From Nereocystis luetkeana (lineage: Eukaryota; Sar; Phaeophyceae; Laminariales; Laminariaceae): a stretch of DNA of 64,000 bases. Below are positions 3,560-59,200 of this stretch, one piece after another. Within the stretch, counting starts at the first letter, position 1; the number at the start of each line of letters is the position of its first letter. The DNA is taken from the NCBI GenBank assembly GCA_031213475.1, contig JARUPZ010000003.1, positions 10,443,963 through 10,507,962 of the forward strand. The letters run 5' to 3'. The notes below the pieces were generated by a model. The model ran no database searches, was not told the DNA's origin, and saw only the letters and a list, made by a program, of their open reading frames with translations. A program made the position numbers and the translations under genes.

Positions 3560-4860
3560 ACCGATGGAAATTGTTTTGGGCCCTGTTTTCCGTTCCCCGA
3601 AGGCGGAGTTTTGTTTCTGGGCAGTTTTTGATACTTCACGATTAGTTTATTTGTTCATCGTTATTTCTGTGATAGCTCCGCACGTTGCACTTTCGAGTAC
3701 TTCCTGTTCGGACACACTACCCCGCTGTACCTCTTTTTGTAGGTTTCGGTGAAGTCGCTTGCAATCCCTTCCCTCGGGAAACCGAAACACCGCTCGTACG
3801 TACAGCTGTACTAGGTACACCACATCATGACGCTCTGTTTTTAGTTTTTAGGCTCGGGAAACCGTTATTAAGAGACGTATAAAGTACAAAATGCATTGCG
3901 AAGTACCTGGTACGTGATTTTCGGGCCTTTTCTCACAGATACGTTGAAAAAAATGCCCCCCGGCGGCACTCCGGGGGCTCTGCCGCAACACAGCTTGAGT
4001 TGCTTGAGGCGCTGCGCGCAACAGACGCTCAAGCACTAACTAATGCTCTGCTGCAATCTATATTCGCAAGGGGTGAGAGGGGGGGGGGTGGGGGGGGGGG
4101 GGGGGGGGCAATCGTTGACACGTTGATATATCGGTGCGATTCCCCCATTTCCCCTGCAGGTTGTTGATGTCTGTTTTTTTCCCCGTGATATTACGTTTTA
4201 GCTTTTTTCTTCCACTCCAGAATTATTATTAAATTATTAGTCATGGAGCCTCCTGTGTAAAAATCTCCTGTGTAAAAATCACACTCCATCCTATTTGCTA
4301 CTGCACGACCAGGTATATAACACACAACGCACCACGCATTATGAGGCACTAAATATCAATACTTGCAGTACTCGGGGTACGGGTATACGGGGACAATGAT
4401 ATCATACGCAAATACTGCTGTACCTCTTCACGGACGGTAAAATATACCAGTACCAGGTACCACTCATACCTGGAACAAAAACCTTTCAAAGGAATTACAG
4501 CAGTATGTATCCAGTGTTTGTCGCGGCGTCACCACGGATATGTGACCTTGTCTGTCCCCTTGACGTTTGCTTTCACCAACACGAACGACAAAAGGCAAAC
4601 GACGACTCGTTCAAGCAGGTGCTGGTGTAAAACACGGGGATCGGGGGCTAGGTAAGCTTCACCGCGTGAGCCAAAAGTCGTGAGGGTCCAGTGTGTGAAC
4701 AGAGTATATACCGCCGTGCTCTCGATGCAAATACTACTCGCGCTGCTGCTGGACTTCGTGCTGTGATGATTTTATGTACTCTTGGATATTCAAACCGTAC
4801 AGAAACCAAAAACCTGAGGCAAATTTCAAGTGGTTTGTTCCCCCACAACGGGACTACAGC
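3560..4860. other. No recognisable gene; long G-run at 4078-4109
   Basis: Contains GGAAACCG(A/T)-type small repeats, a G-run broken by one T, and two TACC(A/T)GGTA words. Frames are short. Confidence 0.5.
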
Positions 4861-4867
4861 CCTCCTA

Positions 4868-4975
4868 TTACCCCTTTTAGGACTGCAGTCTCGCTCTGGA
4901 GACAATTGGGGACATATTACTTGGAATTTGAGTGGTTTGTCCCCAAAAACGGGACTGGAGTTCTAAAAGGGTTAA
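4868..4975. mobile_element. MITE family B, copy 2
   Basis: Inverted arms with CCCCTTTTAGGACTGCAGTC and GGGACTGGAGTTCTAAAAGG, ending in TTAA on the right. Another half-arm lies just upstream at about 4820-4860. Confidence 0.8.
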
Positions 4976-5026
4976 TATCAATATTAATACCATCAATATT
5001 TGTATTATTAATAATACCGGAGTAGT

Positions 5027-5185
5027 AACCCTCTCATTAGGACCGCAGTCCCGTTTTGGGGACAAACTACTTAGAATTCGAATAGTGTGTGGTTTGTCCC
5101 AAAAACGGGACTGGGACGAACTACTCAGAATTTGAGTGGTTTGCCCCCAAAACGGGACTGCGGTTCTGAAACCAAACGGGGTTAA
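5027..5185. mobile_element. MITE family B, copy 3, composite
   Basis: Three arm segments with GGTTTGTCCC and AACGGGACTG words. The middle one appears duplicated, giving about 159 instead of 97 bases. Confidence 0.75.
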
Positions 5186-5189
5186 TCTT

Positions 5190-8100
5190 TCGTGATATAT
5201 ACAGCTGCAGTACGGACCGTCGATGCACAGCCTTGCGCGTCGTGCCAACACGCAGCTCCGCGAGTTCAAGACACAGCAGAAGCCCACACCACACGAGTAC
5301 ATGGTAGTGCAAATACCGGTAGTACTTCAAGACACGCGCGACCCTATCTATGCATCTGTCTGTGTGTATCATACCACCATGATGCATGCATTGTCTGTTG
5401 TTGGTTGTTGGTGCTGCTGTTTCATAATACATAATACCTGGTGCACAACAGCGAGCACATTGGTGTTGACTATATTCTGTACTCAAAAAGTGCAACGAAA
5501 AAAAGTTCAGCGCACGACGAGATGGGAGACCGACTTCGCCCACTAAACAGCAGAGTGCTGCTGCTGTCGAGGCTGCCGCTCCCGCCTGCCTGCCTTCTGC
5601 ACGACATAGATACATCATGGTGGCAGCAATGTACACACAACACTACTCTCTCTAGTATTTTCACGTTATCATACCGCAGCTTTACAGCCAGTAGATTACG
5701 ATAAAGACGTACTGCCAGTACATCCTCCTGCCTGTGCCAGTGTCTACCAAAGTGCTATACCTAACAAATCCCAAAGCACCACTGACCAAGAGCAGCCAGC
5801 ACCAGCAGAGTACAGCTGCAACCGCTCTTGCTGCTGCGCAAAACCAATGGTATCGGTCATTGCCGCGGCTATACACGAGAGGGAGGGAGGGAGGGAGGGG
5901 CTCATGCCCTGTGCCCCCTTCGCCAAGTAGTACACAGAGTACTCGATGGATTATCAATACCCTGGTATCATATCGTAGTAATGGTATTGATGTATAAATA
6001 TTCATGTAGTAGTACAGAGTAGAGGTGGTAACAGAGTAATAATAGTAGTAGTTGTAGTACGTGGTATTAATAGTCGTACTACAGTTGTATTATTAGTCAC
6101 AGACCCACCTGCTGGCGTGCTTGCCAGTCAGAGTCAGTAAGTCTCGGGCTGGGCATCATGCACGCCCCGGCCACGACCACGCCGTCGCTCGTGCGACACA
6201 GCAGCGCTAGCGGAGAGACAGGCACGCACATCTCGTTGTGTCTAACTTCTTCAAGCCCACATCTACTGCTGCTGCTGCTACACTGCTGGCTGCTGCTACA
6301 GCAGTACTGATGCTGCTGCTACTGCTGCTGTGTCTGTCTGACTCCATCGTCCCTCCTGTCCTGGCTTTTCGATGTTCAGGAACGAAGATCTTCACACTAA
6401 AAGACAGAGACTCACCTCTCACCTCAACCTGGAGTGAATTGGCAACAAAAGCCCGCCGTTAGTTAGCTGAAACTTATAGTTCCTTCCCGCCTGCCGCCCA
6501 AGAGGTCCCCGCAAAAGCTGACAAGGCGCGCCCGGAGAGGGGGGGACGGGAGGGTGGGCGATTGATGCTTGTAACCTCGACTACAGCAACTACTGTTTTC
6601 TCTTTGCTGCTACTGCTGCTTCTGCTGCTGCAGTGTTGTGGTCACCCAGTGGAGCTGACGGTACAGCATCAAACTTGCAAACCACAGACAGAAGTCAAAA
6701 CATAGTCAGATACCCAGATACCAGGTACCAGATACGTACCCACTTTCCATGATTCGTCCTTTGATCTTCCGAGATCTCGCATATGATCATATATCTCACA
6801 CCACATCACGAATCAAATTTCAAAATCACAGCATCTACGATCACAAAATCGCCAAACAATAATAATAGGAAAAATCGACGTAAAAATATCACAGCATCAC
6901 AGCATCTACGACGACCATTTTTTTTGTGGCAAAAACAAACACTCGTACACGAACAAATACAAACCTAGAATAAATAACAAATCCGTCACCAGGCAAGGAC
7001 GGTTTTTAACGACGATTATATGCTTAGTCTTGCATGTAGGTGGCAGGTCGTACCACCAGGCACAATCACATCCACACAGCAAGAAGACTACTGCCGCTCG
7101 CTGCTTGCTGTAATTGTCCGTAACTTAGCTGTGGTGGGTAAATCCGTTAAGAGAACGCATGCATGTGCAATCACATATTTTCTGCAATCGGGGAGACGAA
7201 AATTTAGCTAAAAAGGTGGAAAAGACTCCGAAGGGAAAGCTTGTACTACGTACTGCTGTACTCGTACCAGTATGCATTTTTTTTCTTTACAGACTCTAAT
7301 AACAGCACGCCAGCTGCGAGTTCAACCGATCGGTCGATACTCGACCTTGCAAATATGCGTGAAGCATTCGCGCGTTTTCCATTATCAATGGCTATATATT
7401 TTCTGAATTCGGGAATAATAATAGACGAAATCGGCAAAAAAAATACCGCAGACAAAAAAATCTGTTTGAAATGGTATATCTTTGACAAAGAAAGGCTTGC
7501 ACAACCACCACCTGCACCTTTCTTTCTGTCCGGTAACCTCGTGTATATGTATTATTGCGCACAGCCAGCACATTGTCAACACAACAAACAGCGAACACGA
7601 CAACAAACAACGAACCACAGAACAACAGTAAAACAACAACGGACTACTGCGTAATAAGTAACACCGCCCGTGCAAACACCACCAACAAAAAAAAGTGTGT
7701 GTCACGATTGACACAGCATCCGACTTGCGCAAAGACAACTCGATAACACCTTTCATCGATGCTGATCCCCGAGAGAGTGGCAACGCCACACAACCCACCT
7801 CTCGGTGTACCTCCACACCCACCCATACCACAGAAAGAGATGACTTGCTGGAGGACTATGTACCGTCCCAAGCAAATACCACAAAAAAAATAATGGCAGA
7901 AAGCAGGTCACCGACAGGGTGTCAGTTTCAAGATCAACCGCCGTGTGTGCCTGCCTGCTGTGGTTTTCCTGTGTTTTTCCCATTTTCTTCGGTTCCTTTT
8001 TTTTTACCCCCCCCCCCCCCCCGCCCGAAACCCCCCGCGCTCCCCTATATACCGATTGCTGCTACTTACGTAGTACCGCTTTGCTATATGATGCTCGTGT

Positions 8101-8755: not shown

Positions 8756-8760
8756 GATCT

Positions 8761-8809: not shown

Positions 8810-8949
8810 GTTGTTTCACAAACAAAAAAAGATGGGCGTACTCGTATCTCGAATAAAAAAAACACCATATTATTAGTCTGTTGTACGTACTACCTGGTAC
8901 TCTCTACTACGTCGTGTGCCAGACACGCCCCCCCCCCCCCCTATATGTG

Positions 8950-9060: not shown

Positions 9061-9906
9061 TCACCCCCTCCCCCCCTCCGTTGCCTGTGACTATACTGTA
9101 TAGGAGTGGTAATCGGTATTTGTAAGTCACGCCCTTACAGCATAGCCACAGACGACGAGGAGGGAGGGCGTGCCCATGTCATGCATGAGCACACACCCTC
9201 GTCCATAGTGCACCCCCCCCTCGGCTATAGTTACACCCCCCCCCCGCCCCTTCCACCTCGTCTACAATAGTGTACATACACTACCCCTTCATCGTCTGTG
9301 GCTCTGATGTAAGGGCGTGAGACTTGCAACTACTATACCCCGGCCTCCACCACTCACTCATAGATACTCTCTGCTACTACAGCAGTGTTGTACTACTACT
9401 ATTACTAATACTCCTCATTCTCATCCTCCTGCTCTACTGCTACTACAGTATGCGTACTGTTGGTACTATTGCTTCTACTACCACTACTACAGCATGCACA
9501 GGTATGAAGCAGTATGGAACTAGGGGCCGAAAAATCCTCCTGTCTGTGCAGGAGAGTGTTTGAGGTTCTGGTTATGGTCTGGTCTGGTCTGGTCACTCAC
9601 ACACAAGGTGCTTGGATGTATCGTTCCTTGTATTCGTTGCCTTCTCGCTGGTCGGGTGCCTTCTGAACGAAGGGGCGAGGGCATCGTCATCCAAGCTGGC
9701 GATAACGCCTGCCACGTATAATGAGGGGACGTTCGCTATGAATCATAACGCCCCAACAGGGAAGCGGGGATACCGCAACAAGTATTACTACCACTGCTGT
9801 GCTACCACTACTACTGCTACTTGTTCACTGTACTTGATACTACTGTCTACTATTAGTACTACTCGTATTTACCGGCAGATCACGACTACTACGGCTGACT
9901 TTACTA

Positions 9907-10024
9907 TTACGGGGGACCATAGTAAATAGGACCAAATATTGTTGGCAAAAAAAGCGAAATATATACTCGCAGGTTTTTGTGCGTACCTTAGGTCTTACCA
10001 GGTATTTAATATGGTCCCCCGTAA
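9907..10024. mobile_element. MITE family A, copy 1 (TA-flanked)
   Basis: Inverted ends TTACGGGGGACCATAGT with TA on each side, as in Stowaway/Tc1-mariner type MITEs. The right arm carries an extra CCAGGTA compared with the other copies (see 9996-10004). Confidence 0.85.
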
Positions 10025-10032
10025 TAATGTGA

Positions 10033-20690: not shown

Positions 20691-20920
20691 ACCACTATTA
20701 AACATCCCCTAAGACAGTACTCTTCTGTTGTCGGGAGAGCCGAGTTTGTAGATGCAGTGGGGTGTGCGCAACAACGCAACGCAACGCAGCACAACGCACA
20801 ACGTGAGTCGCGTTGTCGGCACCAGGCCTTACCGTATTGTATAACATCCGTAACCCCTCCTCCCCCCCCCCCCCCCCTGTCTCCCCCCATAATATATACC
20901 TGGTACCTGGTATATACATA

Positions 20921-38296: not shown

Positions 38297-39090
38297 CATG
38301 TCGAGCTTCGGACTGCACTGCTGGCGTTTCGGGGGGAAAATACGAAAATACTTGGAAATACTTGGAAATACGGTGGGATACTTTTTTGGCAAGAGGAGGT
38401 GGAAATCGAGTGTGGGATACTTTCGGCAGAGGAAAAGGAGTCAAGATGGGTTAGTGGCGATGGGGAGGCTACAGCTTACAACCGGGTCGGGGGGGGGGGG
38501 GGGGGGGGGCGGGGGTAGCCGAGGGGGTCTGCGAGGTCGTGGTAGCGCAGTACAACCAGGAGTGGTACAAGCAAGGAGCAAAGTACCGACCGGCACCTAC
38601 ATGCCAGTATGGGTAGGTAGGGGGGTAAAACTTTGAGAGGCCTAATTTTTGTCACCCACCAGGGATTACCGTAAGATATTTGTAAGATATTTGTACTACT
38701 CGTATAACGTGGTACTCGAGTACAAACCGGTACTCGAGTACAAACCGTATGTATAATGCTACATACGAGTGCACTCACTTACCAGTGTGTGGTACTGGTA
38801 TTAATAGTTATTAATATTAATAAGGCTGATACCTGGTACCTGGTACCTCATAGCACGTCTTATCACAATGCACCAGCACCGCAGCAAATGTCGGCGAGAG
38901 GGTCTCACAAGCAAAAACGAGCCTAATAACGATAAAAAAAACGTGCGCCAAATTATACACCAGGTTAGCGTACCAGCACTTGGCTGGTCCGTTGTATACC
39001 AGATAATAGGTGGTTACCTGGTGTAACGCACTTTATTACATTAATATCACCAGAGTATTGCAGTAGGTACAGCCGCTACAGCAGTAGTGA

Positions 39091-39175
39091 CTACTAGGAC
39101 CGCAGTCCCGTTTTGGGGACGAATTACTTAGAGTTTGAGTGGTTTGTCCCCGAAACGGGACTGCGGTTCTAAACA
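39091..39175. mobile_element. MITE family B copy
   Basis: AGGACCGCAGTCCCGTTTTG / AACGGGACTGCGGTTCTAA arms without the outermost TTAA bases. It lies in the interval between the two host genes. Confidence 0.85.
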
Positions 39176-40300: not shown

Positions 40301-43300
40301 GTATGTATTTCATTTATTTTGCCGCACTACTGCTGTGCTCATGATAAAATGCTACATGCCGTATACCTGGTATACGAAATCTCGGCTGCCGCTGCTGCTG
40401 CTGCTTTTGTGTGCTGCTGTAGTGTGCATTAGGTAGTATCAATAGTAGGTTGCTGCGTCAGCGCGCGTCTCTTATGTACGGTTGCTGTGATGATGTTGCA
40501 TGCCGACCATCTGTTTTTTTCGCAGTGCTCCCTTTCAGACGTTCTTGCGTTGTCGAGTTATCGATGTGCGGGATGTTTATGCCGTAACACCCTCTCAGGT
40601 ACCCGATTAAAGAGAGCCCCAGTGAAATACGGAGATAATAAGAGCGGTTTCGTCGGCTTGTCACGACTTGTGACACCTATATAGGAAGAGCCCTTTGGAA
40701 CAGGCCAGTCTAACCGCTCTCATCTCCAGTGGCGCTCTTATCTCAGATTGCGTATCATATACCAGGGTACCAGGTACCTGGTAGGTTCTACAGCAATAGT
40801 ATAGGCGTCATGATCAACTAGACCAAGACGTTTTGAGGGACTTGGTTCACCGCGAGGAGGACCTCGAGGAGGACGGGGTGAAGATTGACCCACTAACTTG
40901 CGTACGGAGGTCAGTATGGGGTATATCCTGGACGCGGGCGATGGAGGCATTGTGTCTAAGTCGGCGGAAGGCCTCGCGAAGATGATGACCGTCGTTGTGA
41001 CCGTTTTCGAACCAGCAGGCCTCACCGTATCCCAAAACGGAGACTATGCTGCTGCAGGCACGGAACCAGGCACCCCAGACCTCACCGCTCGTCATCGAAG
41101 CAGCGGCGGAACGGAGGTAGAGACGGACGATGCAGTGTTTTGTAACTGGGCGGTCTTGTCGTCGCAAACGATGACGGTATGCCAGAGATCATACAACGGA
41201 TCCGACTCGCATGGGCATGCTACATTCGGTTCAAACGGGAGCTGTATGATATGGAGGATGTCCCGTTCACTCTTAAAGTGCGCATGCTACGGGCCGAGGT
41301 GATAAAGACCCTTGGCCGGGAGCACTTCACTGAGCTCCGAGCGACAAACCACAAAGTCGTCCGGCGGATCATTGGCTCCCAGCGCCAACAACGCACCGAC
41401 CACCTCATGCCGTACGCCAAGGCCCTTGGAAGGGCACAATTCGAGAGCGTTGAAACGGCCATCCTCAAACGACGCCTCCTCTTTGCGGGACCGTACAGCG
41501 GACGACTAATGAGCGGCTAACCCGTCGGGTGGTGTTCGGGACGATGGCTGGTGGGGAGAACCCAGGACGAGGCCGACCGGAAAAGAACTGGGCCCAATGT
41601 CTAGCAGTTGACCTCAGGGTTTTTCAAGCCACCGAGGGGTCCACGGAAAGATCCCCTCTGCTGTTCGGAGTAGAAACGGTGTTATGGCCGAGGACGGCTA
41701 ATAAGAGCGGGAAGTAGTACCGGGGGGTCGTGGAAGCGGCAGACTGTTTCATGGCGACGTGGCACAGGGACGAGGTGCAGAGAAGCCGGTTTCGCCTCGC
41801 AGCTGAGGACGCCAAGAGCGGCGGCAAGGGGTGGGGGGAGGGGGGGAGGACAGCCGTACTGATCCAGCTGTCGACGAGTGCATTAACGAAATGATAGATC
41901 AGGTGGCTAGGTATCCGTGCGACTAGCCCTTGAATTCTTGCAGTTTATGTTTGTTTCTTGTGGAGTTGTCGAACGGGGGGGGGGGGGGGGGCGCGACAGC
42001 GGCAGCACTGTCGCTTAACACCGCTATTGACGAGAGTAGGAAAGAGACGGCAAAGGGTGTGGCTAAGTTCCCGAATCGATTTTCTAGTATCGACGGGCAC
42101 CCATGTTACATGCCGCCTGGAGTGCGTCTTTCTCTTTTCTTCTTCCTCCTTGCTTTTTTTTTGCCGTGTATCTCCCGTTGTTTCCTTTCCCCTCCCCGCC
42201 GTCACCATGCCGGTATCTCCCTCTCTCCTTCGTGTTGCTTCGCCCGTGCAGCAGCTATCTGTCCTCCTTGAGTACGTATGCTTTCCTTCTACATGGCAGC
42301 CTTTCTGATTTCCTTGCCCCTGAGTAGGTTTAGCAATCTGGGAGAAGGGATCTTTAGGGATGTTTTTGACTTGAAAAACGCGTAACGTGGTCCGCACTTC
42401 GGAATCGTCGTCTGCAACTGAGAAACTTCCTGGTTCGATGCAAACGCGGCGCAGCCGCGTTTATGGCGAGTTTTGGCCCGTGTCGGCTGCGGTTTGGGGT
42501 CAGGGTTAGGGTTAGGGTTAGGGTTAGAGTCAGGGGTTGGGTTGGGTCTTCGCCCGTACCTCGATCCCGACAGGAACCAAAACACCTGAACAGCCTACCA
42601 ACCTAAAGATCCCTTCTCCCATATTGTTAAAGGTCCTCTTGCACCTTTTGCATAACGTTTCATTTCAGGATCGTTTTTGTTCTGTGCTTGTCTTTTTGTT
42701 CTTGTTTTCTGGTCTTGCTTGTGTTGTTGTGTTCTCGTACGAGTGGCGTACCCGGTACGCTGGCATTTCACTTGCTTGACCCATGAATTCGAAATTCTTT
42801 TTTGTTCTTGGTCTTCCTCTCTCTCACGGTCTATGGCCACATAATTTGTATTTTTGTAGAACGAGGAATCGGGACGGACACTGGGTTGTACCAGTACTGA
42901 TGAAGCTGGGTAGAAAGGACAAGTTAATGTGAAGACAACACACACCACGGACTCCTTGATTTGAGAGGAAACATGGGAGCATCAACAACATGTACACAGA
43001 GATACAGCTGTAGACTATAGGCCAACGAATAAAAAATAAGCTATTACATGTATACTCGCAGCAGTATCAATAGGAACACGAGGCTCACTTTAGAGGGGGG
43101 CGCTCAGAAAATTGGATGAATAAACCGTGGTCAGCGGCGAACACTACACACTAAATCCATTCCAATAGCCCACGCTCAAGGTTGTTCAATGGTGTCACAT
43201 CACATATAAGGTCATAAAGGCTTGCGCGTATCGCGATTAGTCTAGATGCTGTTGTTCAGCAGTAGTATCGCGAACAGCACCTTACATTCTAGGCGGGCGC

Positions 43301-46300
43301 TCAGAAAAAGGGATACATGAATAAACCGTGGTCAGGGGCGAGCACTGTACTAAATCCAATACGATAGCCTACGCTCGAGGTTTTTCAAGGATGGTGTCAA
43401 ATTATGTTTTCAGGTTCTACCGGGTAAAGACTTGCGCATGTCACGAGCAGTGGGTGCTTCTGTTCAGCAGTAGATAGTATCGCGAACAGCAACAGCTGCA
43501 GTGCTACCGTTTCATATGATATGTAGTAGGGAGCTCCCAATAGTGTCGGTACGTGCCACCCATGGTAACCGGCACTATCCGGGACACCCGGTATTGTTGC
43601 GAATAGGATCGGTATATATCGGTACCATTGGGGGTTTGAGATGCCCTCGATGGTGCCGGCGTCAAAGAGCGAATGAGGTTGTACGAACACACACAAACAC
43701 ACACTAACGTATGTGCCACCGCAAAACCCTTCTGTTGATAGCACCGCAGTCTTGTTGTGGGGACAGACTGCTTATAACTTGACTGGTTTGTCCCCCAAAC
43801 GCGACTGCAGTCCTAAAAGGCCCGCCAAGAAATCCTGACGGCCGTACTGCTGCAGTTCACCCGCTGCACGGACATGGTGTTTGCCTCTACCGGTCGTGCC
43901 GCGCGGTACAGAGTACATACACCTACGGAATATTCGACAGGAAAACTGGGCCAGGCTGGACTTCTCCTTCGAGAATGGGCGCGTTCCGCACTAACTTCGG
44001 AATAGCGACTCCCGAATTTCGTAGTTCGGTGTTTCCCTGTGAACAACAGCAGCCTGCCTTTCTTGTTGCTCGATTTTTTAGTAGGTTTCCTGCACTGTAG
44101 GGGGAGTGCGCTCATATGTACGCTGGGGTGCCATCATAAGTATGTGTGTTGTGTCGCTGGTACCCTTACTGCTGTTCTGACGCGCCTCTCTAAGTGTGTC
44201 TGTCTCTCTCCCCTCACATCTACAGCAAGCCGGGGAGCAAGGCTGGAGGGGTTTTGTAGTGACGTGGGCGCCTAAACCGGCACTATTCAGAGCCCCGTAG
44301 GGAGGGCAACCGGCAATATTGAGAGCCCGCTCGTAATAATACCGGTACCGGTATTGTTGAGGGTCCCAGTCGTGGCAAGTCATTTTACCGGCATTATTTG
44401 GAGCAGTGGCACTATTCCACCGGCACTATTGGGGACCCCCCCCCCCCACTGCTGTGTGGCATTGTTGTACCACGGCCTCGTTTCCGCTCGTCGGCTTACC
44501 GCGTGCTTTGTCGCCTTCAGCTGTTAAGAGACTGCCAGATCAATACAACAACAGTAAAGCGCGGGGCGATCTCCAGCGCAACATCGCTTTGTGCTGGCTG
44601 TGTCTCCACTTGGCTTGCGACGATAAAATGGCTGCCGCGCAAGATCGAGGATTTTACAGGGATGCGGTCGAAATTGACAACGTTGACCAATCACGTGCAG
44701 TGTGGTGTACAGCCCAAGCCGCGGCTCTTCGATTTGTGCCTCGTATTGAATGATCGAGATGTTTGCTACATTTCATACCGTGCACATACCTGGTAAAAAG
44801 GACCGGTCAAGTTCAAGTTCACCCTTGCAATTCGCTGCGCTTGCTTTATTTATGGCCTCGATGCTGCACATGCGGTTGAGTTCCATATACACTTCTTTTT
44901 TTTCTTTTTCTTTTTTCGTATGTAAGATGTGCTTTTCAGTTGCGGCGCGTTCTGTTTTGTAACAGGCACGTATGATTTTCGTTGTTTTTTTCCTGAGGTA
45001 ATTTCTTCCACTCCAAGATTGTTTTTTGGAGCCTGTCCTGTGACCGCGGACCAGTTTTTTTTTTTGCCATGATGTTTTTGTGAGAACAACATTGGACAAA
45101 CTACAGTGGTACGGGAGGTCTGCCTCACTACCATGCTGCCCTGAACGCCAAAGGTCTCAGTAGACGGCCTTGTTCTTCTACCCTATTTTTTGCTGCGCCC
45201 CCACTCCGCTCCGCCTCCCCTTTCGTCTGTATCTTGTTGCCGCCTGCCCTCGGCCAACGCCCGAAGGGGAAAGCTTGTGTGCACTTCGTTCGGATTAAAA
45301 AGTTGCCGCCAGACCTCCCGCCTCTCCCGGCACTTGCCAGTGTGCCCGGCGTTCGGTGCATTCATCACACGATCGACGTTGTTTTGTTACTGTTGACGTT
45401 ATTTGTTTGCTCACGTTTTCGAGCTGACAGCGCCTCCATGTCTGCACCGTTCAGATTCATTAGCACAATGGGAAGTATGCGCTTGTGTATATGTGGCCAT
45501 GTACGTACCAGGTAAACAGCAAGCGATGCCCGTCCTCCTTTCTGATACTTGAGAGGAGGGTGGTGACAATAAATGCGATTGCATTTGTGCCCTCCGACTT
45601 GAATCGAATATTATTTCCTACTACCGCAGTAGTAGTGTCTCTCCTATCACTCTGACCCAATTAATATCCCGCTTTCCATCCTCGAAGGCTCCTTCCTACT
45701 ACTGTACTTGCACCTTCCTCCCTTTAGCAAACCCTCGTTTGCCCTACTCCTCGTCAATATTCCACCCTAAGATATGGCGATTTTCGTTCTTTGTTTTTTG
45801 TTTTTTCCATTATTTACCTATTCGTTATCTTTTCCATTTAGTATCTTTATTTTCTCCCTTCCTTCTATGCGTAGTCGTAACTCAGATCTGGGGTCACATA
45901 GCAGGCTCTTCCCCTCCCCCCTCCCCACTACCTACGATTCGTGCCTTGCATTTTCTTATCGAGCAAAAAGACTTTTGCCCTTCCTCCCCTCGTTGGCTGG
46001 CACAGCAGCAGTAGTAGCATGGTAGCATCATCGACTGCACGAAGCACTCCCGTATTTTTTACCAGGTAGGGATGATGGCGGTGATGGCTTTCTTGTCCGA
46101 ACTTGGTTGGAAAGGTTGCACTGCTATGTACAACGCCCGCACAGCATGATGCCATTCGTTCTGCTTTTGCAGTGCTCCACTTTTGCTGCAGTAGATCGCT
46201 TTCAGAAACAGGAAGGGGGGGGGGGGGGGGGAGGGGTACTCGATAAGAGAGATGTACTCGATCTCATGCATGGCCGTAGTCGTATGACCATAGATCCTCG

Positions 46301-49300
46301 CGTCCTTACAATGCCGGGGTGGAGCATGTCGGGTTTTCTCCGACCAGGCAGACATTACTTGCACCAAGCGCGATGCGCCGTGCCGTGAGGTGTCCGGCGA
46401 GTCGCATGAAGGGTGAGTTGCATCCCTACTAAGAACCGCTTGAGAGGCGGACCTGCCTATGGATGACAGCTTCAATGAGTTAAATTTAATTTCTGGTGTA
46501 GGGGGGGGCGGGGGGCGGGGGGGGGGGTATATATCATGCATGGCTGTAGTCGTATGACCATAGTCCCTCGCATCCCTACAATGCCGGGACGGAGCACGTC
46601 GGGTTTTCACCGACCAGGCAGACATTGCTTGCACTAAGCGCGAAGCGAGCGCCGTGAGGTGTTCGGCGAGTCGCATGAAGGGTGAGCTAGCTGCATCCTT
46701 TCCAACGTCCTGGCGGGGGACCGGGTGTGAAAATTGCGACTTCTTCTTACATTTTCTCCCGGGCCGTTCTTGGTTTGTTTCCCCCTGCTGAAAATGGTCT
46801 TGAAATACTGTTTTTTGTTTTTGTATTGACAAGGCTCATCCTTATCGGAGAGCGTTTTTTCCATAACTTCCAAAAATTGGAAATAATTGGAGATGTGCAT
46901 CAATATACGGAGGCGTTTTGTCACTATTCGTGAAATTCTACAGAGGCAGAAAAAACAAGTTCGTTAAATTTCACATATTTGAAAAAATAATCAGGGAAAT
47001 ATGGAAGATGGAAAAATTGCGCGAAAAAAATGTGGAAATTATGGAAGAAAGCTCTCCGATAAGAAAATGACCTTAAGTCAGCAGTTCCCTTTTTTTCGCG
47101 GTCGCATTGTCGCAATACCTGGATAGCGTCAGCCGCCGACGTTCGGGTCGAGTCTTACCATTGATACTGGTGACACTAACGGAAGTGTTTTCAGCAACTC
47201 TCGCCCGCGCGATAAAAGTACCACCATCGAAAATTGCGAGCAACTCCCCGGTTGCTATTGTTGCTTTTAGTGTTTTATTGTTTGGTATCGTTGTTGTTCG
47301 CGATTGCTTGTTGTTGTTGTTGTTGTTGTTGTTTTTGTTGTTTTTGTTGTTTTTGTTGTTGTTCGTTGTTGCTTGTTGCTGCTGTTGTCTTTGATTGAAA
47401 CCGCTCACTCTCTACATCCAGCGACAACAACATCCAGCGAACCCCCGTGTCCGTGCTGGTCCTTCCTATTTTCATACATTTCAGCAATTACTGCCAGAAG
47501 CATACCCTATAGAGCGTGGAGTTGACACAGGGAAAGAGAGAGGGGTGCGATCGATTGTTTTTCGGCGCTCTCTCTTGTCTTCCCTTAAAACGGTGACCGG
47601 TAAGAGGTGCTAAAAATCGAACGTTACGTTTTCGGAAGCCTTTCTCTCTCGACCAGACCTTAACCGAGAATACCTTGCGATTCGGTCATTGACAACCTTC
47701 CCGTGCTATAAAAAAACAAAAAAAATCCAGCGCTGAAAAACGATCACACTGGGGTGCAAATTCAACGCATTTATTACGTTATTTTGGTGTGTTTCGCGCA
47801 AATATTGAGACCAATTTTCCTAATTCCACCGTTTCTGGACCCTTTTAGAACCGCAGTCCGTTGTGGGGGGCAAAACACACTAAATTTTCAAGTAGTTTGT
47901 CCCCAAAACGGGACTGCGGTCCTAAAAGAGCCAAGTGCTGTCGCGTACTGTTTGAGCCTCTATTTTCTCAACTCCCATTTTCTCAATTTAGTGCCGCGCA
48001 CTGTTTGAGCCTGAGTTCTTGACTTTCGACTTTCGTAAGCGGTATCGAGGACTGGTTTTCGATGCACGTGCCTATTGTCTCCCAATTTACTAGCTGTTGT
48101 GTTGCGTATTTCTGTTCGAATGCTGCTTGCTTCTGTTGTTTTTTGCTCCCCATTTCTCACGTGGTGTCGCTTATTGTGTGAACATCAATATCTCAAGCCC
48201 CAATTTCGTACATGGTGTCACGTACTGTTTTCATTCATGAAATCCCTATATTTGAAGTGTTGGCACGACACCACTAAAGGAATTGGGGTCAACATTGCGA
48301 TAGCACTTCTAGATTTTTAGGGAGTTCAGTAACCCAGGCTCCACATTTCTGCGCGAATGGAGGCGTCTTGGGCCTCGGGTTCGTCTGCCCCGAGGCCGAT
48401 GCCCCACCCGGGGGTAAAAAGGGCTAGCTCCAGCCAAAAAAATGGTGCAAGTGCTCCATAGATGCTGCTTCTTGTCCGGGTTCAGCGTGAACTTGGCGAA
48501 AGTGCCAGCAAGGACGGCGCATTCTCGAAATGCGGTCGCAAATAGCGCAGTGGAAATTACCAAGGCTTTTCACGGGTCATGACCCGACCCGTGTGTAGGG
48601 TTCGGAAGTTTTTTCGAAATCTCATAGGTCGGAGCGGGACTGGTCGGGTCGGGTCGGGTCGGGTCGGGTCGGGTCGGGTCGGGTCGGGTCGGGTCGGGTC
48701 GGGTCGGGTCGGGTCGGGTCGGGTCGGGTCGGTTCGAGTCCGGTCAGGAGGTCTTCAATTTCCCACGGGTCAGGTCGGGTCGGGCCACCCTTACCCGACC
48801 GGACCCGACCCGATCTGACGAGATTCCATCCGACCCGTGAACAACATAGGAAATTATGTACGCCTCGACCGATGCGTTCGTGCTCACGTGGGCCTGGCGA
48901 GGACACAATCCGCTCCGCTGCGCCGGGTTCCTGTAAAAGGCGAGCCTTTTTGGCCATCATCTACTGCTCCGCGCAGGAATATGACACATCGTCAACGAAG
49001 TACCATAACACAAAACTGACAAAAAACATTCTTAAACCGGCACGGTATATTGAAATTGGTGTAGGATTCACGCTGCTATGATGATACTGGTGGGATATTA
49101 TTTGCTGGTATTGCGTGCTGCTGTATACCATTGTCGGCGAAAATATAAGGACCACTTGGTATTCATAATAGTGTATGAGCGGTACTTATATTTCCGCCCA
49201 GGGCTATGGTATATACCAGTAGAGTGAGTACCGCGAATGGACAACACTATCGGCGACATAAGGCTCGCCTTTTACAGGAACCCTTACCCGACCGGACCCG

Positions 49301-51410: not shown

Positions 51411-53311
51411 GGCTATTGCTCCTACTGCTGTTGCCGCTGCTGCTGCTGCGGTTGTTGCTACTACTGCCGCGGGTGCTGTTGCTACTGCTGCCGCCTTCTG
51501 CCGTCGCACTGTTAATAGTACACGAAGTAATATCTAAATATCGAAGATAGTACAGCTGTCGCTGGGAACTCGCGCAGCAGGATATTCACAACTGTCGTCA
51601 ACGTGTGTGCTTTCGTGGATGGTAGACGGCGTAACAGTCGTCGTTGTTGTCTCGTCGACACTGCAAAATCCGTTTTGCTGTAACAGCAGTCTGCTGTTGT
51701 TCGGTCACAAGACAGGAGGCATCGGATCAGGCTCCAGTACGCTACTGCTGTACTGGTATTGCTGTAGTACCATACACAAGACCGAAGACATCCGGATCAG
51801 GGACCAGGCTCAAATACGTCTCAAGCTGCTGTGCTGTGTGCGAGTATTATTAGTACGAGTATTCATAGTACGGCGTAGTACCACACACGACAACATTATA
51901 CTGCCGCCGCATGCTGTTACGGGAGACCATAGTAAATAGGACCAAATACGGCTAGTAAAAATAGGTGAATGTATAACAGTAGTTTTTTGTGTGTACTGTA
52001 GGTCCTATTTACTATGGTCCCCCGTAATATTACATACGTACAGCAGTACCACTACGTGTGGTGAAAGCAACGGTAATGACAACGGTCGCAATATTGGCCA
52101 CCTGGACCTCGCTCCCATCGCCTTTACTGCCCCCTCCGCACCCATCCTTTTGTCTGTCTGCTTGTCCTTCCGTCCGCCCGTCCGTCCGTCCGTCCTTCCG
52201 CCGGTATGTCCTCCATCCCCCCGGAAAACGGATGCCATTCTTGCGATTGCACCTTGCATGCGCGAACGAAACTGCAAACGCAAACTCAAATGGAAATAAA
52301 CCTGCAAATGCAACACTCCAATGTCCGGACAAATCGCCGCGGTCTGCTGGTCGAACGAACGATCTTCCCGGACTGTACGCAGGGCCTGAAAATGGGAATG
52401 GAACACCTTAAGGTAAGAAGGGGAGAGGAGGAGGGGAGGGGGGGGGGGGGGGGGGGAGGTGAGCAGAAGGGAGGGGACGGAGGCGTGCTCGTTTTTTGCT
52501 CAACTCAAGCCGTTTGGCTATTTGATCACGCATCCCTTTCGACACGAAGCACCGGGGGAAGGGGGGGTATGGAAGACGGCAATAGTTTGGGGCTAGGGTG
52601 GAGAGGTGGGGAGGATGGAGGGGGGGGGGGGGGGGGGGATCGGTACTCGCCGGCCTCATTTATTTTGCTTGGGGTGCGCACGCGGCGCAAGCCTCCCGTC
52701 TCCCGTCCCACGCAAACAAGCACCGTTCGTGGCTGTCACAAAGGCCAGAGGTTGGCTCGCGGCTGCTTCAAAAGTATGAAGGTTTTGAGGGTGGTGTGCT
52801 TCAACAGCAGCAGTAGCAGCAGCAGAGCGAAAGACGAAGCAGTTTTTTTCAGGGATTTCCATGGGACCCCTTTGGCTCAACCCGGCTGCAGAACGCAATC
52901 CCTTAAAATCGATCCAGCTCCAGCTCCAGCTCCAGCTCCAGCTCCAGCTCCAGCTCCAGCGAATTTAGACGCCCCAGAGCACGTGCCATGGAGTCCGGCC
53001 AGGGCCCGCACGTGCGCGGTAGTGTACCGGCGGACCTTCTGCGTGCACGGAGGCTGGAAGGGTCTCCTGAGAGGCGTGTGGTGTGCAAATACGCGTACCA
53101 GGCAGGTATATGAAAAAGATACGTCTGATGCTCGAACATCTTCCTACCCTGTCCCGCAAAGTAATGACCTTTTGGATATTATAATATGATCGATAGTATC
53201 CAAACGATCCTTGTATTTTGTGAATTTTGTTTCTCGCCCGAAACCGCTACGTACACTTCCATGTTTTTTTTGTCGTTTTCCGTCCGAAAACTTTGAAACT
53301 CGAATTGTGTG

Positions 53312-53342
<31 letters not shown>

Positions 53343-56159
53343 TCGTTCTCACAAATATCGGAAACGCTTCACAAAACAAAACTAAAACTACTGTAGGTCG
53401 GCTCTGACGCGCCGGCGTTCGCGGTGAGTGATCAAGACGGCGCTGAAGTGACCCTGGCATCGTTCAAGGGCCAGAAGAATGTCGTCGTCTACTTCTACCC
53501 CAAGGACGCCACGGTGAGGGAATGTTACAGTTAACACAACGGCATGCCATGTACCAGGGTGCATAAATATTGTACAAACATTCGGTCGGTCTCTCGGTCG
53601 GTCGGTTGGTCGATCGGTTGGTTGATTGGTCGGTTCGGTCAGCCTGTCGGTTGCCTCGTCGGCCAGTCGGTCTGTCGGCAGGTTGGTTGGTCGTTCTGTC
53701 AGTCGGCCGGTATGCATGCACGTAGGTCTGATTTTACCTCGTTGCAATTCATCTAGTTGTCGCTTTCAGGGGCCAGAATACAATATGGGGTGTGTGTTTT
53801 ACCCCGAAGCGCGCCACGGCGAGGGAGTACTAATGTACAATAGAGCAATCACTACGCCGGGCGTTGGGTAGGTCTTTGCGTCTGTCTGGTGCTTTTTGTA
53901 GCGTTCGCTTTGTTTTTTAGTTTATCGGCGGTCAGAAAAACGTAGTTGCGTTATTTTTATCCCCAAGGACGCCATGGTTAGTGTTGCGTCTCCGCGAAAA
54001 AATCAAGTTGGTCTTTGATTTAAGTCAATTGATATTTCAAAATCAATGTTGGTATTTAAAAACAATTGATTTCTGAAATTAATATAGATATGCTTACCGT
54101 AGGGTGTGTATATTTATTGGCTGTGTTGGCTTTATGCGTCTGTTTAAGTACTGTGGAGTAGTGTTTTTCAGGGCTGTTTTCGCGGGTCCGGTCAAACCTC
54201 GCGGGTCGGGTGGGCCGGGTCGGGTCACCTATGCCGACCCCGACCCCGACGCGTGAGATTTCGAAGACCTCCTGACCCGATCCGACCCGACCCGACCCGC
54301 CCCGACCCGACCCGACCCGACCCGACCCGACCCGACCTGACTCGGCCCGTGAGATGTTGAAGACCTCCTTAACCGATCCGCGGACCGGGTCATGACCCGT
54401 GAGCTGCCATGTGTTCTGTTTGCCTTGCCTTGCTTTGCCTCGCCTCTAATCCCTTCCTTCGATTCGCGACCCATGCTCTGCTTTTGATTCCCACTCCATG
54501 TCGATGTCATTGTCCGCCGGTATGGTTGCCCACCGGTGACATAACATGGGCGACAATTGTACCGACTTTTCCGCTGCTCGAAAACCTCCGCGGGTTTCTT
54601 GCTGCTCATCGACTGGCGGCGACGCCTCTTCGCTGCGGAAATCTGGAATATTTGGGGCCTGCTGATAGTCGGGCTGCACGAAAGAGGCCATCACGTAAGT
54701 ATGCGGTTACACCGAGCGCCATGGTTGAAGGTTTGTCCGTGCTGTTGTTGTTACTATTACTGGGGGCCATGGTAAATAGGACCTACGGTACGCACAAAAA
54801 CTTATATATTTACGTATTATTACTAACAGTATTTGGTCCTATATACTATGGTCCCCCGTAATAGTAGTGGCGGTCTCCATGGCCCACGTATTGGCGGTCG
54901 TTTTGGAAATACCGTCATGCGTGGCCCCTGTGGGTTGTGGTGGTGTTCCTACTACTGCTGCTGCTACTGCTGCTACTGCTGCTACTGCTGCTACTGCTGC
55001 TGCTGCTGCTGCTGCTACCATGAATACTGCTACTGCTCTGCTTCCATGTTTACTACTGCTACTACTGGTACTATTTCTACTATTTAGTGCCACAGTGTTC
55101 CTACTACTGCTGCACCTATAACACCACTCCTGTTCCTTTATGTCGTGGTTTGATGGCGGCGAATTATACTATAATATTCCTGTTCCTTTGTGTCGTGGTT
55201 TTATGGCGGCGGAAGAATGAAGTTTCGAGACCCACAAAAAGGAGGAAGCACCGTCAAGAGTACCTACGTACGCACTCTCTTGTTCACGCTTGAGCACAGA
55301 GGGAGGATTGCTACAGCAGTACGTCGTAGTAATGCCGTGCCCTATATTGGCTAATGGCAGTAAAACAAATGCTGCCGCAAGCCCTGAAAGAAATGCTGCT
55401 GGTACAGCTCATATATACTATGTACATATATCATGTATATACAGCGATCGATTTATCACGCCAAGCTTGCAAATACGAGTTTCGAGTAATTTTTCGATCT
55501 CACAGCTGCGACTTTTTTCATTGTTTTTTTCATATACCAGGGTACAGCGTATGACCGCGAATAGGAAAACGCCTACCAGGTACGGATTAATGATATGAGG
55601 TTCACTTTTTGGAGGATGGAGGACGCTACGAAAGAAAATGGAACCTACGGTATGTAAGAATTCGCGCTCAGCGGCTATAAATAGTGCTACACTCAAGTCC
55701 TTCGTAATTGATGGCCTATGCTCATGCTCAGAGTGGTTCAAGGATTGTTTCACATTAGGTGCGGAGCCTTGCTCGCAGCAGTCGTGTTCCTTGTAGGCGG
55801 CCCCACACTGCTGTGATTTAGTGTATTCGTAGGGATGCTTGTAGCCCAAGAACGGTTCAATAGGATAGTGAGGTTTTGTGCTGCATGGTGTGGCGGGTTG
55901 CTTGGATACGAAGCCGTCATTGTACGTAGGCAGCTTCTGGACCCGCCCGTGCTGTTGAATTCTTTACGCTAACCCGAAGGTGTACTTTAGCGCCAAGTAG
56001 CTACGGCATGCTCCCATTGCTGCTGCTGCTGCTGCTGCTGCTGCAGTGCCGTCACAGACAATGGACGAAGCAATAGTCACCGATTGCACATGTATGCTTC
56101 TGTTCGAACTTCGGACGCACAAATGGCGTTTGTAACGACCCACAGAATTTGAAGAATAC

Positions 56160-56207
<48 letters not shown>

Positions 56208-59200
56208 GTCATTTTTGCGGCATTGTACCCGCAGCATGGATGAAGAGACAAGAAACGCCGATTGCATGCCCATGCCTTTGTTGGGGCGTGGGAACGATGT
56301 TTCGTCAGACCCCCCCCAATAAAACTAAGATATACCTGGTATGGAATTAAATATATACCCTGGTATACGGTATGAAACGCCGAGGATGTGCAGCAGTAGT
56401 TTACAGCAGCGATGCATGCTCATGTTTCGAGGCGAGAGGGCGAACTTGCAGTGCAGCAATATTTGTGTGCCCACCAAACGGATGAAGAGACAAGAAGAAA
56501 TGCCGAGCACGGATGCTTCATATTATAGCTTTATGTTTGGACGAGAGATGGATGCTTTGTGAGAACCACAGGAGGAAGGAAGATACACGCACACACATGC
56601 TTGCTAATAAAGAAGCTCTGAGATTGCACAAATACCTGGTATGCTTTTTACCCTTTTAGGACTGCGGTCACGTTTTGGCGACATATTACTTGGAATTAGA
56701 GTGGTTTGTGCCCCCAAAGGGGATTGCAGTTTTGCCCTGAAAGGGTCAATGCTCGAACTCTGACAGAGAAGGGTGTTTCGCAGTACAGCTACAGCTACAG
56801 TATTTCTGCTGCTGCTGCTGCTGCTGCATGTACCCACAACAAGAACGAAGGGACAAGAAACGCCGAGCGCATATATCTACCTTTGCAGTGTACATGTCCG
56901 AGCGAGAGAGGGAGAGGGGGAGGAGGGGCATTTGACCAAAAATACGACTGAAGAGATGACGGAACAGACAAGAAACGCCGCTTTTGTGCACTGACTGAGC
57001 TGGTTTCTCGCACGCAACAGGTTTGGGAGCACGAAACAAAATACATGCATGGTGGTACGGATGTTCTTCCCGCCTTTGAGCAACCAACCAACCAACCAAC
57101 CAACCAACCAACAACGCATCGAAAAAGGCTAAAATAATATTATTAGTTACATCATGAAAACAACTGTGCGCCGTTCGATCGTTGTGCAAGCAGTCGATCG
57201 CGCATCCGGTCGGATCGTTGTCGTAACTTGTGTGTGTTTGTGTGTTTGTTTTTTTCTGTTTTTCTGTTTTTCTGTTTTTGTGTTTTTTGTGTATTTTTTC
57301 CCCAAGATTTTGTTTCAGTTTTTGATTGTTTCGTTGTTGTTTCGGTTTTTGCTCGGTTTTTGTGTTTTTTTTACCGTGTTTTCATTTTTATTTCAGGTTA
57401 TTGTATCACACCAATGATGTTTTTTTTTTTTAATTCTTACTCGTTCTTGGTTTCGTTTTTTTTTTTGTTCTACCGTGTTTTTCGTTCGATTCAGGTTTTT
57501 ATGTCAACAGGTTTTTCTTTTTTCTTACGTACCGATAATCATTGTTCGCGATTTGTGTTTTGTTTTTTTTTCCTTTTGATTCGTTTTCGCTTTTTGTTTT
57601 TCGTTTCTCGTTTTTTTTTTTTCGCGCGCGGGCGACAGATTTCGCGACTTGAAGAGCGAGTACGACGCGTTGGACTGCGTAGTCCTGGGCGTGAGCGCCG
57701 ACAACGAGGCCAGCCACACCGACTTCATCGCCGACCTGGGCCTGAACTTCAGCCTCCTGGCGGACACCAACAGGTGGGCGCACAACACACGACGCATGAC
57801 ACACACAGCACACTATATACGTATCCACAACGCATCGAAGACAGCACACGCGCAAGGATCCGCGAAGACACATATTAACAGCCCCTACCAGGTATTACCA
57901 ACTATTGATGGCAACAGCTTGCGATTCAAAAGCGGCCGCGAACACCTCGGACATGCAGGCGTCGGTCAGCTCGCAAACTCGATGTGGAGAGCAAAAGCAC
58001 AACAGGTGTTTTGCAGCTCGGTTTAACCCCTTTAGAACCGCAGTCCCGTTTTGGGAACAAACTACTTGAAAATTGAGTGGTTTGTCCCCAAAACGGGACT
58101 GCGGCTCTAAAGGGGTTAAGTAGTTTTACCTGGTAGTAATGGGCGAGAGGCAGTACGTTATATACTACCTGGTACCTGGTAGGTACCTGGTAGACAGTAT
58201 ACTGGGCGTAGTGGTAATGATGTTTTTGAAGGGACTGGTCGCTCCCGTGCGCCAATTTTGTTTCGTTGCGCGTGTGTCCCCCCCCAATCGTGGAGAAGGG
58301 TTGTAATTTTATCGGAAAGGGATGTGTTTTCCTACCGGCACGTGTCGTCACTCTGACCGCTTGAGTAATAATTAGGAGTACCCGAACCTCCCTCACCTTC
58401 CCGGACACGAAGTGGTGGCATGGGTTATGTATACCGTATCACACTATCACACTGGGTGATAGGATATCACCCCCCTCCCCCCCCCCCGGGACGAATTTCA
58501 AGGCCCGGTTTCCTGCAGAACATGGGGGGGGGGGGAAGGGCAGAGGGCACACACAAAAAACGATAATGGTGGTGGCTTTGGAAATATTTCGTCGGAGACG
58601 GTTGCATAGACGCATCGCTTGGCGTATTCAGTACGCCCTCCCCCTCTTGTGAAGAGAAACCCAGAAGCGTCCGAGGGGGTGTGTTATCTTACCACCCTAG
58701 TGTTATAGTGGTGTGCGGTACCGCTCTGGGCGAAAATACAGGGAGCGTTTAGACATTTACTATGAAGACCAAGCGGTCCTAATATTTTCGCCCAGAGTGT
58801 GATAAACGGTGGTGCATTGCTGTAAGGTTGGGCGGGCGACGAACCGGCTTGTGTAGCCGGTGTAGTTTCTTCATACTCTCCGTGATCGGACTTGATATGG
58901 TATCGTCGAAAACCGTGGTTTGACCCCTTTTGACCGACCGACCGACCCCCTACGCTACAGCTGTTACAGGGGGGGCATATGTAGTGAGAATCAGAACCCA
59001 CGATGGACCCAAAAACCACGTATCCCTCTACTAATAGTATGTTTACGTACCATATTTGTTTGTGATTACTACAGTACCTGGTGTGTTCTCTCGTAATACG
59101 AAGCGTATTGAGGCCAAAAGAGGCGTTTACGCCGCCCAAAAAACAAGAGCGGCCCCCTACGTAGCAGCTGTTTTTGCCTCCGCCCCCCCCAATGTTTATG

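What the first reader, a model, noticed from the sequence alone, without database searches (positions are those of the whole stretch)
3904..58192. TACC(A/T)GGTA is about fifty-fold enriched and behaves like an inserted micro-footprint
By eye the exact 9-mer TACCTGGTA or TACCAGGTA occurs about 26 times (for example 3904, 4451, 6719, 8891, 9996, 20897, 20904, 29830, 33701, 34735, 37701, 38830, 38837, 40768, 40775, 44787, 45506, 46060, 55574, 56333, 56633, 57886, 58127, 58166, 58173, 58184). About 0.5 is expected by chance in 64 kb. Two MITE A copies carry it at the same internal TA where the other copies have only TA, so CC(A/T)GG plus a second TA was gained. That is the pattern left by excision of a TA-targeting transposon, or by another TA-directed micro-insertion. 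It often occurs in tandem, which suggests repeated hits.
Basis: partly seen in the sequence, partly recalled or inferred. Interest (0 to 1): 0.78.

Follow-up and report, generated by a model that had tools for sequence, protein, structure and literature searches.

The report
Genome-wide transposon-excision-like scars at TA
This eukaryotic genome carries roughly two hundred thousand copies of a tiny seven-letter insertion that behaves like the scar a cut-and-paste mobile element leaves when it jumps out, yet the element that made the scars was not identified.

Summary
It is genome-wide: 88 copies in 20 sampled 10-kb pieces, extrapolating to about 205,000 in 465 Mb. The tandem 16-mer occurs 15,917 times, its reversed control twice.

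It is a gain of 7 bp, CC(A/T)GG plus a second TA, at a pre-existing TA. One inverted-repeat site of 'MITE A' is empty 32,141 times and filled 613 times; other repeats show it too. In the 100 inserts listed for that site, CCAGG and CCTGG lead a ragged series (CCAGGG, CCGG, CTGG, CCAG, CCATGG, CCG), and 29 do not fit it. Flanks show a symmetric, selective target preference.

Best reading: excision footprints of a TA-targeting cut-and-paste transposon, like Sleeping Beauty's TAC(A/T)GTA but two bases longer; each scar makes a favoured new target. Excision is inferred: 22 of 22 junctions read were scars, and no element is proven. The only candidate is an old family with ends CCAGGGCTCTT, 3 of 10 ends following TA.

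The parts
3904..3912 (.). TACCTGGTA unit
   Evidence: exact match
4451..4459 (.). TACCAGGTA unit, next to a TACCAGTA-type shorter insert
   Evidence: exact match
6719..6727 (.). TACCAGGTA unit in a run of TA-separated short segments
   Evidence: exact match
8891..8899 (.). TACCTGGTA unit
   Evidence: exact match
9996..10004 (.). TACCAGGTA unit inside a MITE A copy; 4 of 6 window copies lack it
20897..20912 (.). tandem of two units (TACCTGGTACCTGGTA)
29830..29838 (.). TACCTGGTA unit in a palindromic TACGTA context
33701..33709 (.). TACCAGGTA unit
34735..34743 (.). TACCTGGTA unit inside another MITE A copy, same internal site as 9996 but with central T
37701..37709 (.). TACCTGGTA unit
38830..38845 (.). 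tandem of two units
40364..40372 (.).
40768..40783 (.). tandem TACCAGGTACCTGGTA directly after a 6-base variant TACCAGGGTA
44787..44795 (.). TACCTGGTA unit
45506..45514 (.). TACCAGGTA unit
46060..46068 (.). TACCAGGTA unit
55574..55582 (.). TACCAGGTA unit
56333..56341 (.). TACCTGGTA unit, with a TACCCTGGTA variant nearby
56633..56641 (.). TACCTGGTA unit
57886..57894 (.). TACCAGGTA unit
58127..58135 (.). TACCTGGTA unit
58166..58181 (.). tandem of two units
58184..58192 (.). third unit, 2 bases after the tandem (TACCTGGTACCTGGTAGGTACCTGGTA)
9903..10027 (+). MITE A copy carrying a unit
   Evidence: alignment of 6 copies
34647..34766 (+). MITE A copy carrying a unit
30768..30893 (+). MITE A copy, empty TA
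51914..52029 (+). MITE A copy, empty TA
54755..54866 (-). MITE A copy, empty TA
63516..63624 (+). MITE A copy, no insert (the site reads TG, not TA)
48560..48607 (+). end of the only candidate source family (here CCAAGGCTTTTC... after TA); link to the scars unproven

Best explanation
TACC(A/T)GGTA is the repaired scar left when a TA-targeting cut-and-paste DNA transposon jumps out. Steps: (1) an element inserts at a TA and duplicates it (inferred; the duplicated TA is seen). (2) The transposase excises it with a staggered cut that leaves a few terminal bases of the element on each flank (inferred from the insert series). (3) Terminal bases such as CCAGG can pair with themselves across the break except for one central A:A (or T:T) mismatch; repair gives CCAGG or CCTGG, so the middle base is A or T (inferred by analogy with Sleeping Beauty, whose consensus scars are TACAGTA and TACTGTA). 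Imprecise joining gives the minor forms CCAGGG, CCGG, CTGG, CCAG, CCATGG and CCG (these forms are shown; how they arise is inferred). (4) The scar puts TAs five bases apart, the favoured target spacing, so scars attract further hits and build tandems (preference and tandem excess shown; cause inferred). The source element is now rare, mostly excised or lost (inferred).
For: Gain at TA: 613 filled versus 32,141 empty at one MITE A inverted-repeat site (0 control hits); the listed filled places lie on many contigs (the first 100 of 386 reach C9, the first 100 of 227 reach C15). Counterparts without the unit, outside that site: L007:7420 (12 spanning alignments to neighbouring units of a tandem repeat), L011:2188 and L020:1087 (one repeat family, two different TAs), L022:6552 and L022:6570 versus L004, and a different TA of MITE A at L011:8899 (22 of 112 sites had any spanning alignment). 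Ragged series at one TA: of 100 of 1,291 matches listed, 41 are exactly CCAGG/CCTGG; CCAGGG/CCCTGG 9, CCGG 4, CTGG/CCAG 3, single CCATGG, CCATG, CCAGGGG and CCG, pure tandems 3. Between TAs in 264 kb: CCWGG 115 vs 2.3, CCAGGG 7 vs 0.7, CCGG 16 vs 4.0, CCAG/CTGG 26 vs 8.2. Symmetric target preference: total 1.03 bits vs a null maximum of 0.26 in 500 draws; a TA five bases away in 28% vs 7% of sides, and most of those 5-mers are not near CCWGG (5 of 58 are one base off, 41 of 958 in background). A score from the flanks ranks the hit MITE A TA at the 96.7th percentile, the never-hit TTAA-MITE TA at the 14.5th and two TAs beside a scar at the 91st-92nd (training includes a few MITE A sites). Near-miss copies: 92 vs 51.5 expected, mainly transitions. 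Clustering: variance/mean 5.4 over 20 pieces. Precedent: passages.
Against: No proven source: 22 of 22 junctions read individually were scars or mutated scars, none occupied. The inverted-repeat scans gave no CCWGG-ended element. The one candidate family, ends CCAGGGCTCTT, is old (66% mean column identity) while the scars look young, and only 3 of 10 ends follow TA, 4 with a one-base shift. The dominant scar is 5 bases, outside the 2-4 bp stated for Tc1/mariner. 29 of the 100 listed inserts do not belong to the CC..GG series (T-rich 10, CTCC-type 7, CTAGG 3, CAG 2, others 7), so other processes also insert at this TA. At MITE A the middle base is biased, 386 A to 227 T, which plain mismatch repair does not predict. 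One tested TA was never hit (0 filled, 5,933 empty); target preference can explain it, but so could a younger age of that family. The near-miss excess is absent for C to T at the second C, where C to G is up instead (11 vs 5.0).
Confidence: 0.75

Rival explanations
1. A direct TA-directed micro-insertion: some nuclease or repair process cuts at TA and adds CC(A/T)GG-TA in one step, with no transposon excised.
For: No source element is proven, and the gain at TA itself is all that is directly seen.
Against: No such activity is known to me. The series with sides trimmed or extended is what joining of two transposon ends gives, and the symmetric target preference is typical of transposases.
Confidence: 0.15
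2. A functional palindromic motif, such as a binding site for a regulator, kept or multiplied by selection.
For: It is palindromic apart from its middle base and very abundant.
Against: It sits as a 7-bp gain in under 2% of the tested ends of a dispersed repeat. Single-base variants are mainly transitions and affect the outer TA at least as much as the CC core. It is present at about 0.8% of TAs in the sample.
Confidence: 0.04
3. A heptamer microsatellite (TACCTGG)n growing by slippage.
For: Tandems of 2-3 exist; bacterial contigs do show degenerate heptamer arrays of this kind.
Against: 91 of 102 clusters are single units, and single units appear at a TA with no prior copy.
Confidence: 0.02
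4. Spread by copying of a few MITE A or other repeat subfamilies that already carried the unit, rather than many independent events.
For: Some listed inserts are clearly duplicated, e.g. three CTAGG and four CTCCGAG in one stretch of contig C2.
Against: Both A and T forms, many lengths, more than one TA of MITE A, and other repeats are hit; 25 of the 27 window units have no paralogue in the window across them.
Confidence: 0.04

Closest known systems
Sleeping Beauty (Tc1/mariner) excision footprint TAC(A/T)GTA
   Same: Palindromic scar between two TAs, outer letters fixed, middle letter A or T; precedent seen in passages of PMC4378557 and PMC7827188.
   Different: Here CC(A/T)GG, five bases instead of three; very abundant in one genome; source element not identified.
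Tc1/mariner and pogo-type footprints in general (ZB, Passer)
   Same: TA target, TA duplication, short variable scar; palindromic AT target preference reported for ZB (PMC7913693, passages).
   Different: Footprints are given as 2-4 bp for Tc1/mariner and 0-4 bp for Passer (PMC9976928, passages); the dominant scar here is 5 bp.
Mos1 mariner
   Same: Element ends are CCAGG... next to TA (recalled, from no call).
   Different: Its recalled 3-base scars TACCATA/TATGGTA are only weakly enriched here (47 vs 35).
Bacterial heptamer tandem repeats containing TACCWGG
   Same: Same letters, in 40 contig stretches returned.
   Different: They are runs of three or more units (so searched for), many with degenerate neighbours such as TACTTGG and TACCAAG, not isolated gains at TA.

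Membership tests
Tc1/mariner (incl. pogo) transposon footprint | TA target duplicated on both sides of the insert | tested here: met
   Empty TA versus TA-CCWGG-TA at MITE A and other repeats.
Tc1/mariner (incl. pogo) transposon footprint | Footprint of 2-4 bp between the TAs | tested here: not met
   Commonest insert is 5 bp: 41 of the 100 listed, and 115 sites in 264 kb. 3- and 4-base forms are minor.
Tc1/mariner (incl. pogo) transposon footprint | A source element with terminal inverted repeats matching the scar | tested here: inconclusive
   No CCWGG-ended inverted-repeat element in 276 kb; 22 of 22 junctions read were scars. Among 56 clusters of TACC ends in 331 kb, one real repeat family begins TA-CCAGGG, but only 3 of 10 of its ends follow TA. 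The same clustering recovered MITE A and two TA-CAG families.
Tc1/mariner (incl. pogo) transposon footprint | DDE transposase of the source element | tested here: inconclusive
   PF03184 (DDE_1) 28 matches, PF13358 0 matches; in the 10 PF03184 loci fetched none shows CCWGG ends. PF01359 did not complete.
Tc1/mariner (incl. pogo) transposon footprint | Symmetric target preference around TA | tested here: met
   102 sites versus 14,469 TAs; the test folds both sides together, so it assumes symmetry; unfolded sides look alike except perhaps at -6.
Miniature inverted-repeat element (MITE) | Terminal inverted repeats around an internal stretch | tested here: not met
   The insert is 5 bases plus a TA.
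Simple tandem repeat | Head-to-tail array as the usual state | tested here: not met
   91 of 102 clusters are single.
Protein-binding motif under selection | Constraint on core positions, tolerance elsewhere, conservation across relatives | tested here: inconclusive
   Near-misses look mostly neutral; conservation across relatives not testable, no relative is held.

The most novel reading that the evidence does not exclude
A 'ghost' transposon known only from about 200,000 scars: a TA-targeting element, perhaps of a new cutting geometry with a five-base self-pairing overhang, that leaves almost the same 9-bp palindrome each time. Because the scar places TAs at the spacing the transposase prefers, scars seed further scars. 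The element itself is now lost or so mobile that it is almost never caught in place.
Probability: 0.4. Interest if true: 0.85.

Novelty: new variant of a known kind. Interest (0 to 1): 0.7.

Why it matters
Excision footprints are usually studied in laboratory assays. Here one genome seems to hold an archive of roughly 200,000 of them, with thousands of empty sister copies of the same target for comparison. That would let target choice, cutting geometry and end-joining be read statistically from natural history, and would show that transposons can shape a genome largely through the scars they leave. It also warns that a highly enriched palindrome need not be a regulatory motif.

Tried and rejected
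Source element. (a) TA-flanked inverted repeats in 276 kb at 17 of 20 and 13 of 14 matches: L011:7874-9526 and L015:3378-8719 do not extend beyond the scar letters and look like chance pairs; the other CCWGG hits are pairs of tandem units. (b) Two repeats containing TACCWGG were rejected because homology runs on upstream of the TA. (c) Clustering of TACC ends in 331 kb: one search showed 12 of 56 clusters; one search went through all 56. Five hold members that start CCWGG without a following TA; one is a real repeat family, TA-CCAGGGCTCTT (L017, L021, window 48558). Four copies align from exactly that base on, and L021 has TA at both ends, but only 3 of 10 family ends follow TA, 4 with a one-base shift. 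It is kept as a weak candidate, not rejected. (d) Longer inserts between TAs (L018:9716, 26 bases; L029:563; L023:5576) read as pairs of units with a decayed inner TA; GGCAGGCG, the arm of the L018 hairpin, shows no such context elsewhere in the sample. (e) Ten PF03184 loci: only L028 has clear inverted repeats, beginning CAGTGGGG. (f) Interrupted repeat copies: the one case with CCTGG at both borders (L009, 222 bases) is two neighbouring MITE A copies, each scarred.

Other dead ends: Pfam on 10 window ORFs gave nothing above curated cut-offs; Rfam and tRNA scans were empty; viral contigs patterns 0 hits; searches for the literal letters gave papers with no visible bearing, judged from listings (20 of 119; 5 of 5). 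Orienting 112 sites by their middle base showed no clear flank asymmetry; -6 differs somewhat and was not tested.

Not answered: the genome-wide count of TACCWGGTA; PF01359; TACCWGGCAGGCG; and CCAGGGCTYTTCRCGGGTCA, meant to test the candidate family.
Full report
WHAT IS THERE. One-base variants are not comparably enriched: the commonest has 4 copies in the window. The window is G000:C3:10443963-10507962 of an unnamed 465-Mb genome in 1,987 contigs for which no relatives are held. ARAGORN and Rfam found nothing in it, and Pfam found nothing above its curated cut-offs in 10 window ORFs. Chromosome-sized contigs and retroelement domains point to a eukaryote.

GENOME-WIDE. Twenty 10-kb pieces, taken at position 3,000,000 of contigs C1-C20, hold 88 units against 1.6 expected. 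That extrapolates to about 205,000 units (bootstrap 95% 123,000-316,000), about 0.8% of TA dinucleotides in the pieces. The pieces range from 0 to 22 units, variance/mean 5.4. The tandem 16-mer TACCWGGTACCWGGTA occurs 15,917 times against 2 for the reversed control; about 3,300 adjacent pairs would be expected from random hits.

IT IS A GAIN AT TA. In the window 2 of 6 MITE A copies carry CC(A/T)GGTA at the same internal site, one with A, one with T; three of the others have TA there and one TG. Genome-wide the empty form GGTCCTATTWACTATGG has 32,141 matches, the CCAGG form 386 and the CCTGG form 227, all with zero reversed-control hits: 1.9% filled. Each MITE has two such ends, so these are sites, not elements. 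Of 112 sites with enough flank in the fetched sequence, 22 had any alignment spanning the site. Counterparts without the unit include L007:7420 (12 alignments to neighbouring units of a tandem repeat), L011:2188 and L020:1087 (the same repeat family, different TAs), L011:8899 (another TA of MITE A), and L022:6552 and L022:6570 against L004. At three other L004/L022 places both paralogues carry the unit, and several of the 22 alignments are too gapped to judge.

A RAGGED SERIES AT ONE TA. A gapped pattern at the MITE A site matched 1,291 times (680 + 611); the first 100 were listed. Tally of those 100: CCAGG 31, CCTGG 10, pure tandems 3, CCAGGG 8, CCCTGG 1, CCAGGGG 1, CCGG 4, CTGG 2, CCAG 1, single CCATGG, CCATG, CCAT, CCAA, CCGGG, CCG and CC, and three compound inserts that begin CCAGG: 71 that could belong to the series. 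The other 29: CAG 2; CTAGG 3 and CTCC-type 7, partly local duplication; T, TT, TTA or TTAA 10; seven others. Between TAs in 264 kb the same forms stand out: CCWGG 115 vs 2.3, CCAGGG 7 vs 0.7, CCGG 16 vs 4.0, CCAG/CTGG 26 vs 8.2, while CCTGGG is not enriched (1 vs 0.7). This is what joining of two staggered transposon ends would give.

TARGET PREFERENCE. With the insert removed, the flanks of 102 sites differ from 14,469 background TAs out to seven bases on each side, the fifth excepted: A or G, then C or T, then A, then T, and T-A at -7/-6; total 1.03 bits against a null maximum of 0.26 in 500 draws (both sides folded together). A TA five bases away occurs in 28% of sides vs 7%, and most of the five-base spacers are not decayed CCWGG: 5 of 58 are one base off, against 41 of 958 in background. 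A scar creates exactly this spacing. A score from these flanks puts the MITE A TA at the 96.7th percentile of all TAs and two TA contexts next to a scar at the 91st-92nd (the training set includes a few MITE A sites). It puts the TA of a second MITE family at the 14.5th percentile, and there I found 0 filled against 5,933 empty copies. That zero is a result against 'any TA will do' and would also fit a younger repeat.

AGE AND DECAY. Copies with one mismatch number 92 against 51.5 expected beside 115 intact ones. The excess is mainly T-to-C (15 vs 4.6), A-to-G (16 vs 4.1) and C-to-T at the first C (10 vs 3.9); at the second C there is no C-to-T excess but C-to-G is up (11 vs 5.0). This suggests recent, roughly neutral decay, about 0.04 changes per base if all arose at once.

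HOW IT MOST LIKELY WORKS. Sleeping Beauty cuts leave three-base 3' overhangs (PMC7827188, passages), and its consensus scars are TACAGTA and TACTGTA (PMC4378557, passages). The middle A/T can be explained by an A:A mismatch when CAG pairs with itself (my inference). CC(A/T)GG fits the same logic with an end such as CCAGG. Tc1/mariner footprints are given as 2-4 bp (PMC7913693, passages) and Passer's as 0-4 bp (PMC9976928, passages), so a dominant five-base scar is unusual. In the Ectocarpus transposon survey (PMC12477816, passages) the words 'footprint' and 'excision' do not occur in the main text.

WHAT IS MISSING. No source element is proven. TA-flanked inverted-repeat scans of 276 kb gave no CCWGG-ended element. 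Among 56 clusters of TACC ends in 331 kb, one real repeat family begins TA-CCAGGG: four copies align sharply from that base on, L021 has TA at both ends, but the copies are old and only 3 of 10 family ends follow TA. It is the only candidate and a weak one. From the first 100 listed of 1,506 places matching TAGGTCCTACCWGG, I read 20 stretches not in the list: all 22 junctions in them were scars or mutated scars, none occupied. PF03184 has 28 matches and PF13358 none; ten PF03184 loci were fetched and none shows CCWGG ends. The middle base at MITE A is biased, 386 A to 227 T, unexplained.

VERDICT. TA-directed gain of CC(A/T)GG-TA on a genome scale: shown. Membership in Tc1/mariner: not claimed, because the scar-length test was not met and the source-element test is inconclusive. 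Searches for the letters themselves and for genome-wide excision footprints (and the 15 listed of 333 and of 336) showed, in their listings, no report of such a genome.

Noticed in passing
window 9903-10027, 30768-30893, 34647-34766, 51914-52029, 54755-54866, 63516-63624: MITE A: about 125 bp, inverted repeats starting TTACGGGGG, 36 of 46 matched ends preceded by TA, often within TACTA; over 32,000 exact matches to one end site genome-wide. TATTAATA (TA-TTAA-TA, 70 vs 1.8 in 264 kb) may be its own footprint.
   Followed up: partly
window 32275-32372, 39085-39182, 43729-43826, 47838-47935, 56647-56744, 58023-58120: A second MITE family with ends like CCCTTTTAGAACCGCAGTCCCG, some copies flanked by TTAA, piggyBac-like by appearance (recalled); 5,933 exact end matches genome-wide.
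   Followed up: partly
L028 2052-4663: Pogo-type element (PF03184) of 2.6 kb with matching ends CAGTGGGGGGCCCTATATAG and TA on both sides; a relative with one recognisable end in L026.
   Followed up: partly
L014 6005-8058; L032; L020 6349-6570: TA-flanked elements with ends CAGTACCGGCCCGC (2.05 kb, another end in L032) and CAGCAGTGGGCGCC (222 bp).
   Followed up: no
window 48560-48800, 54169-54420; L021 3025; L017; L012; L007; L020: Dispersed old family with ends like CCAGGGCTCTTCACGGGTCA and internal GGTCGGG repeats; it contributes to the enriched GACCCGACC words and is the only candidate source of the scars.
   Followed up: partly
L036-L075 (bacterial MAG contigs): (TACCWGG)3 runs in 40 bacterial contig stretches, several per MAG in Chitinophaga, Acidimicrobiia and Deltaproteobacteria, many as degenerate heptamer arrays.
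   Followed up: partly
window 48787-49753: Two tandem copies of a 493-bp unit with 100% matches, either a very recent duplication or an assembly artefact.
   Followed up: no
MITE A site, genome-wide: CTCCGGAG, CTCCGAG and CTCCGAAG inserts at the same TA, possibly scars of a second TA element, though some are clearly copied.
   Followed up: no
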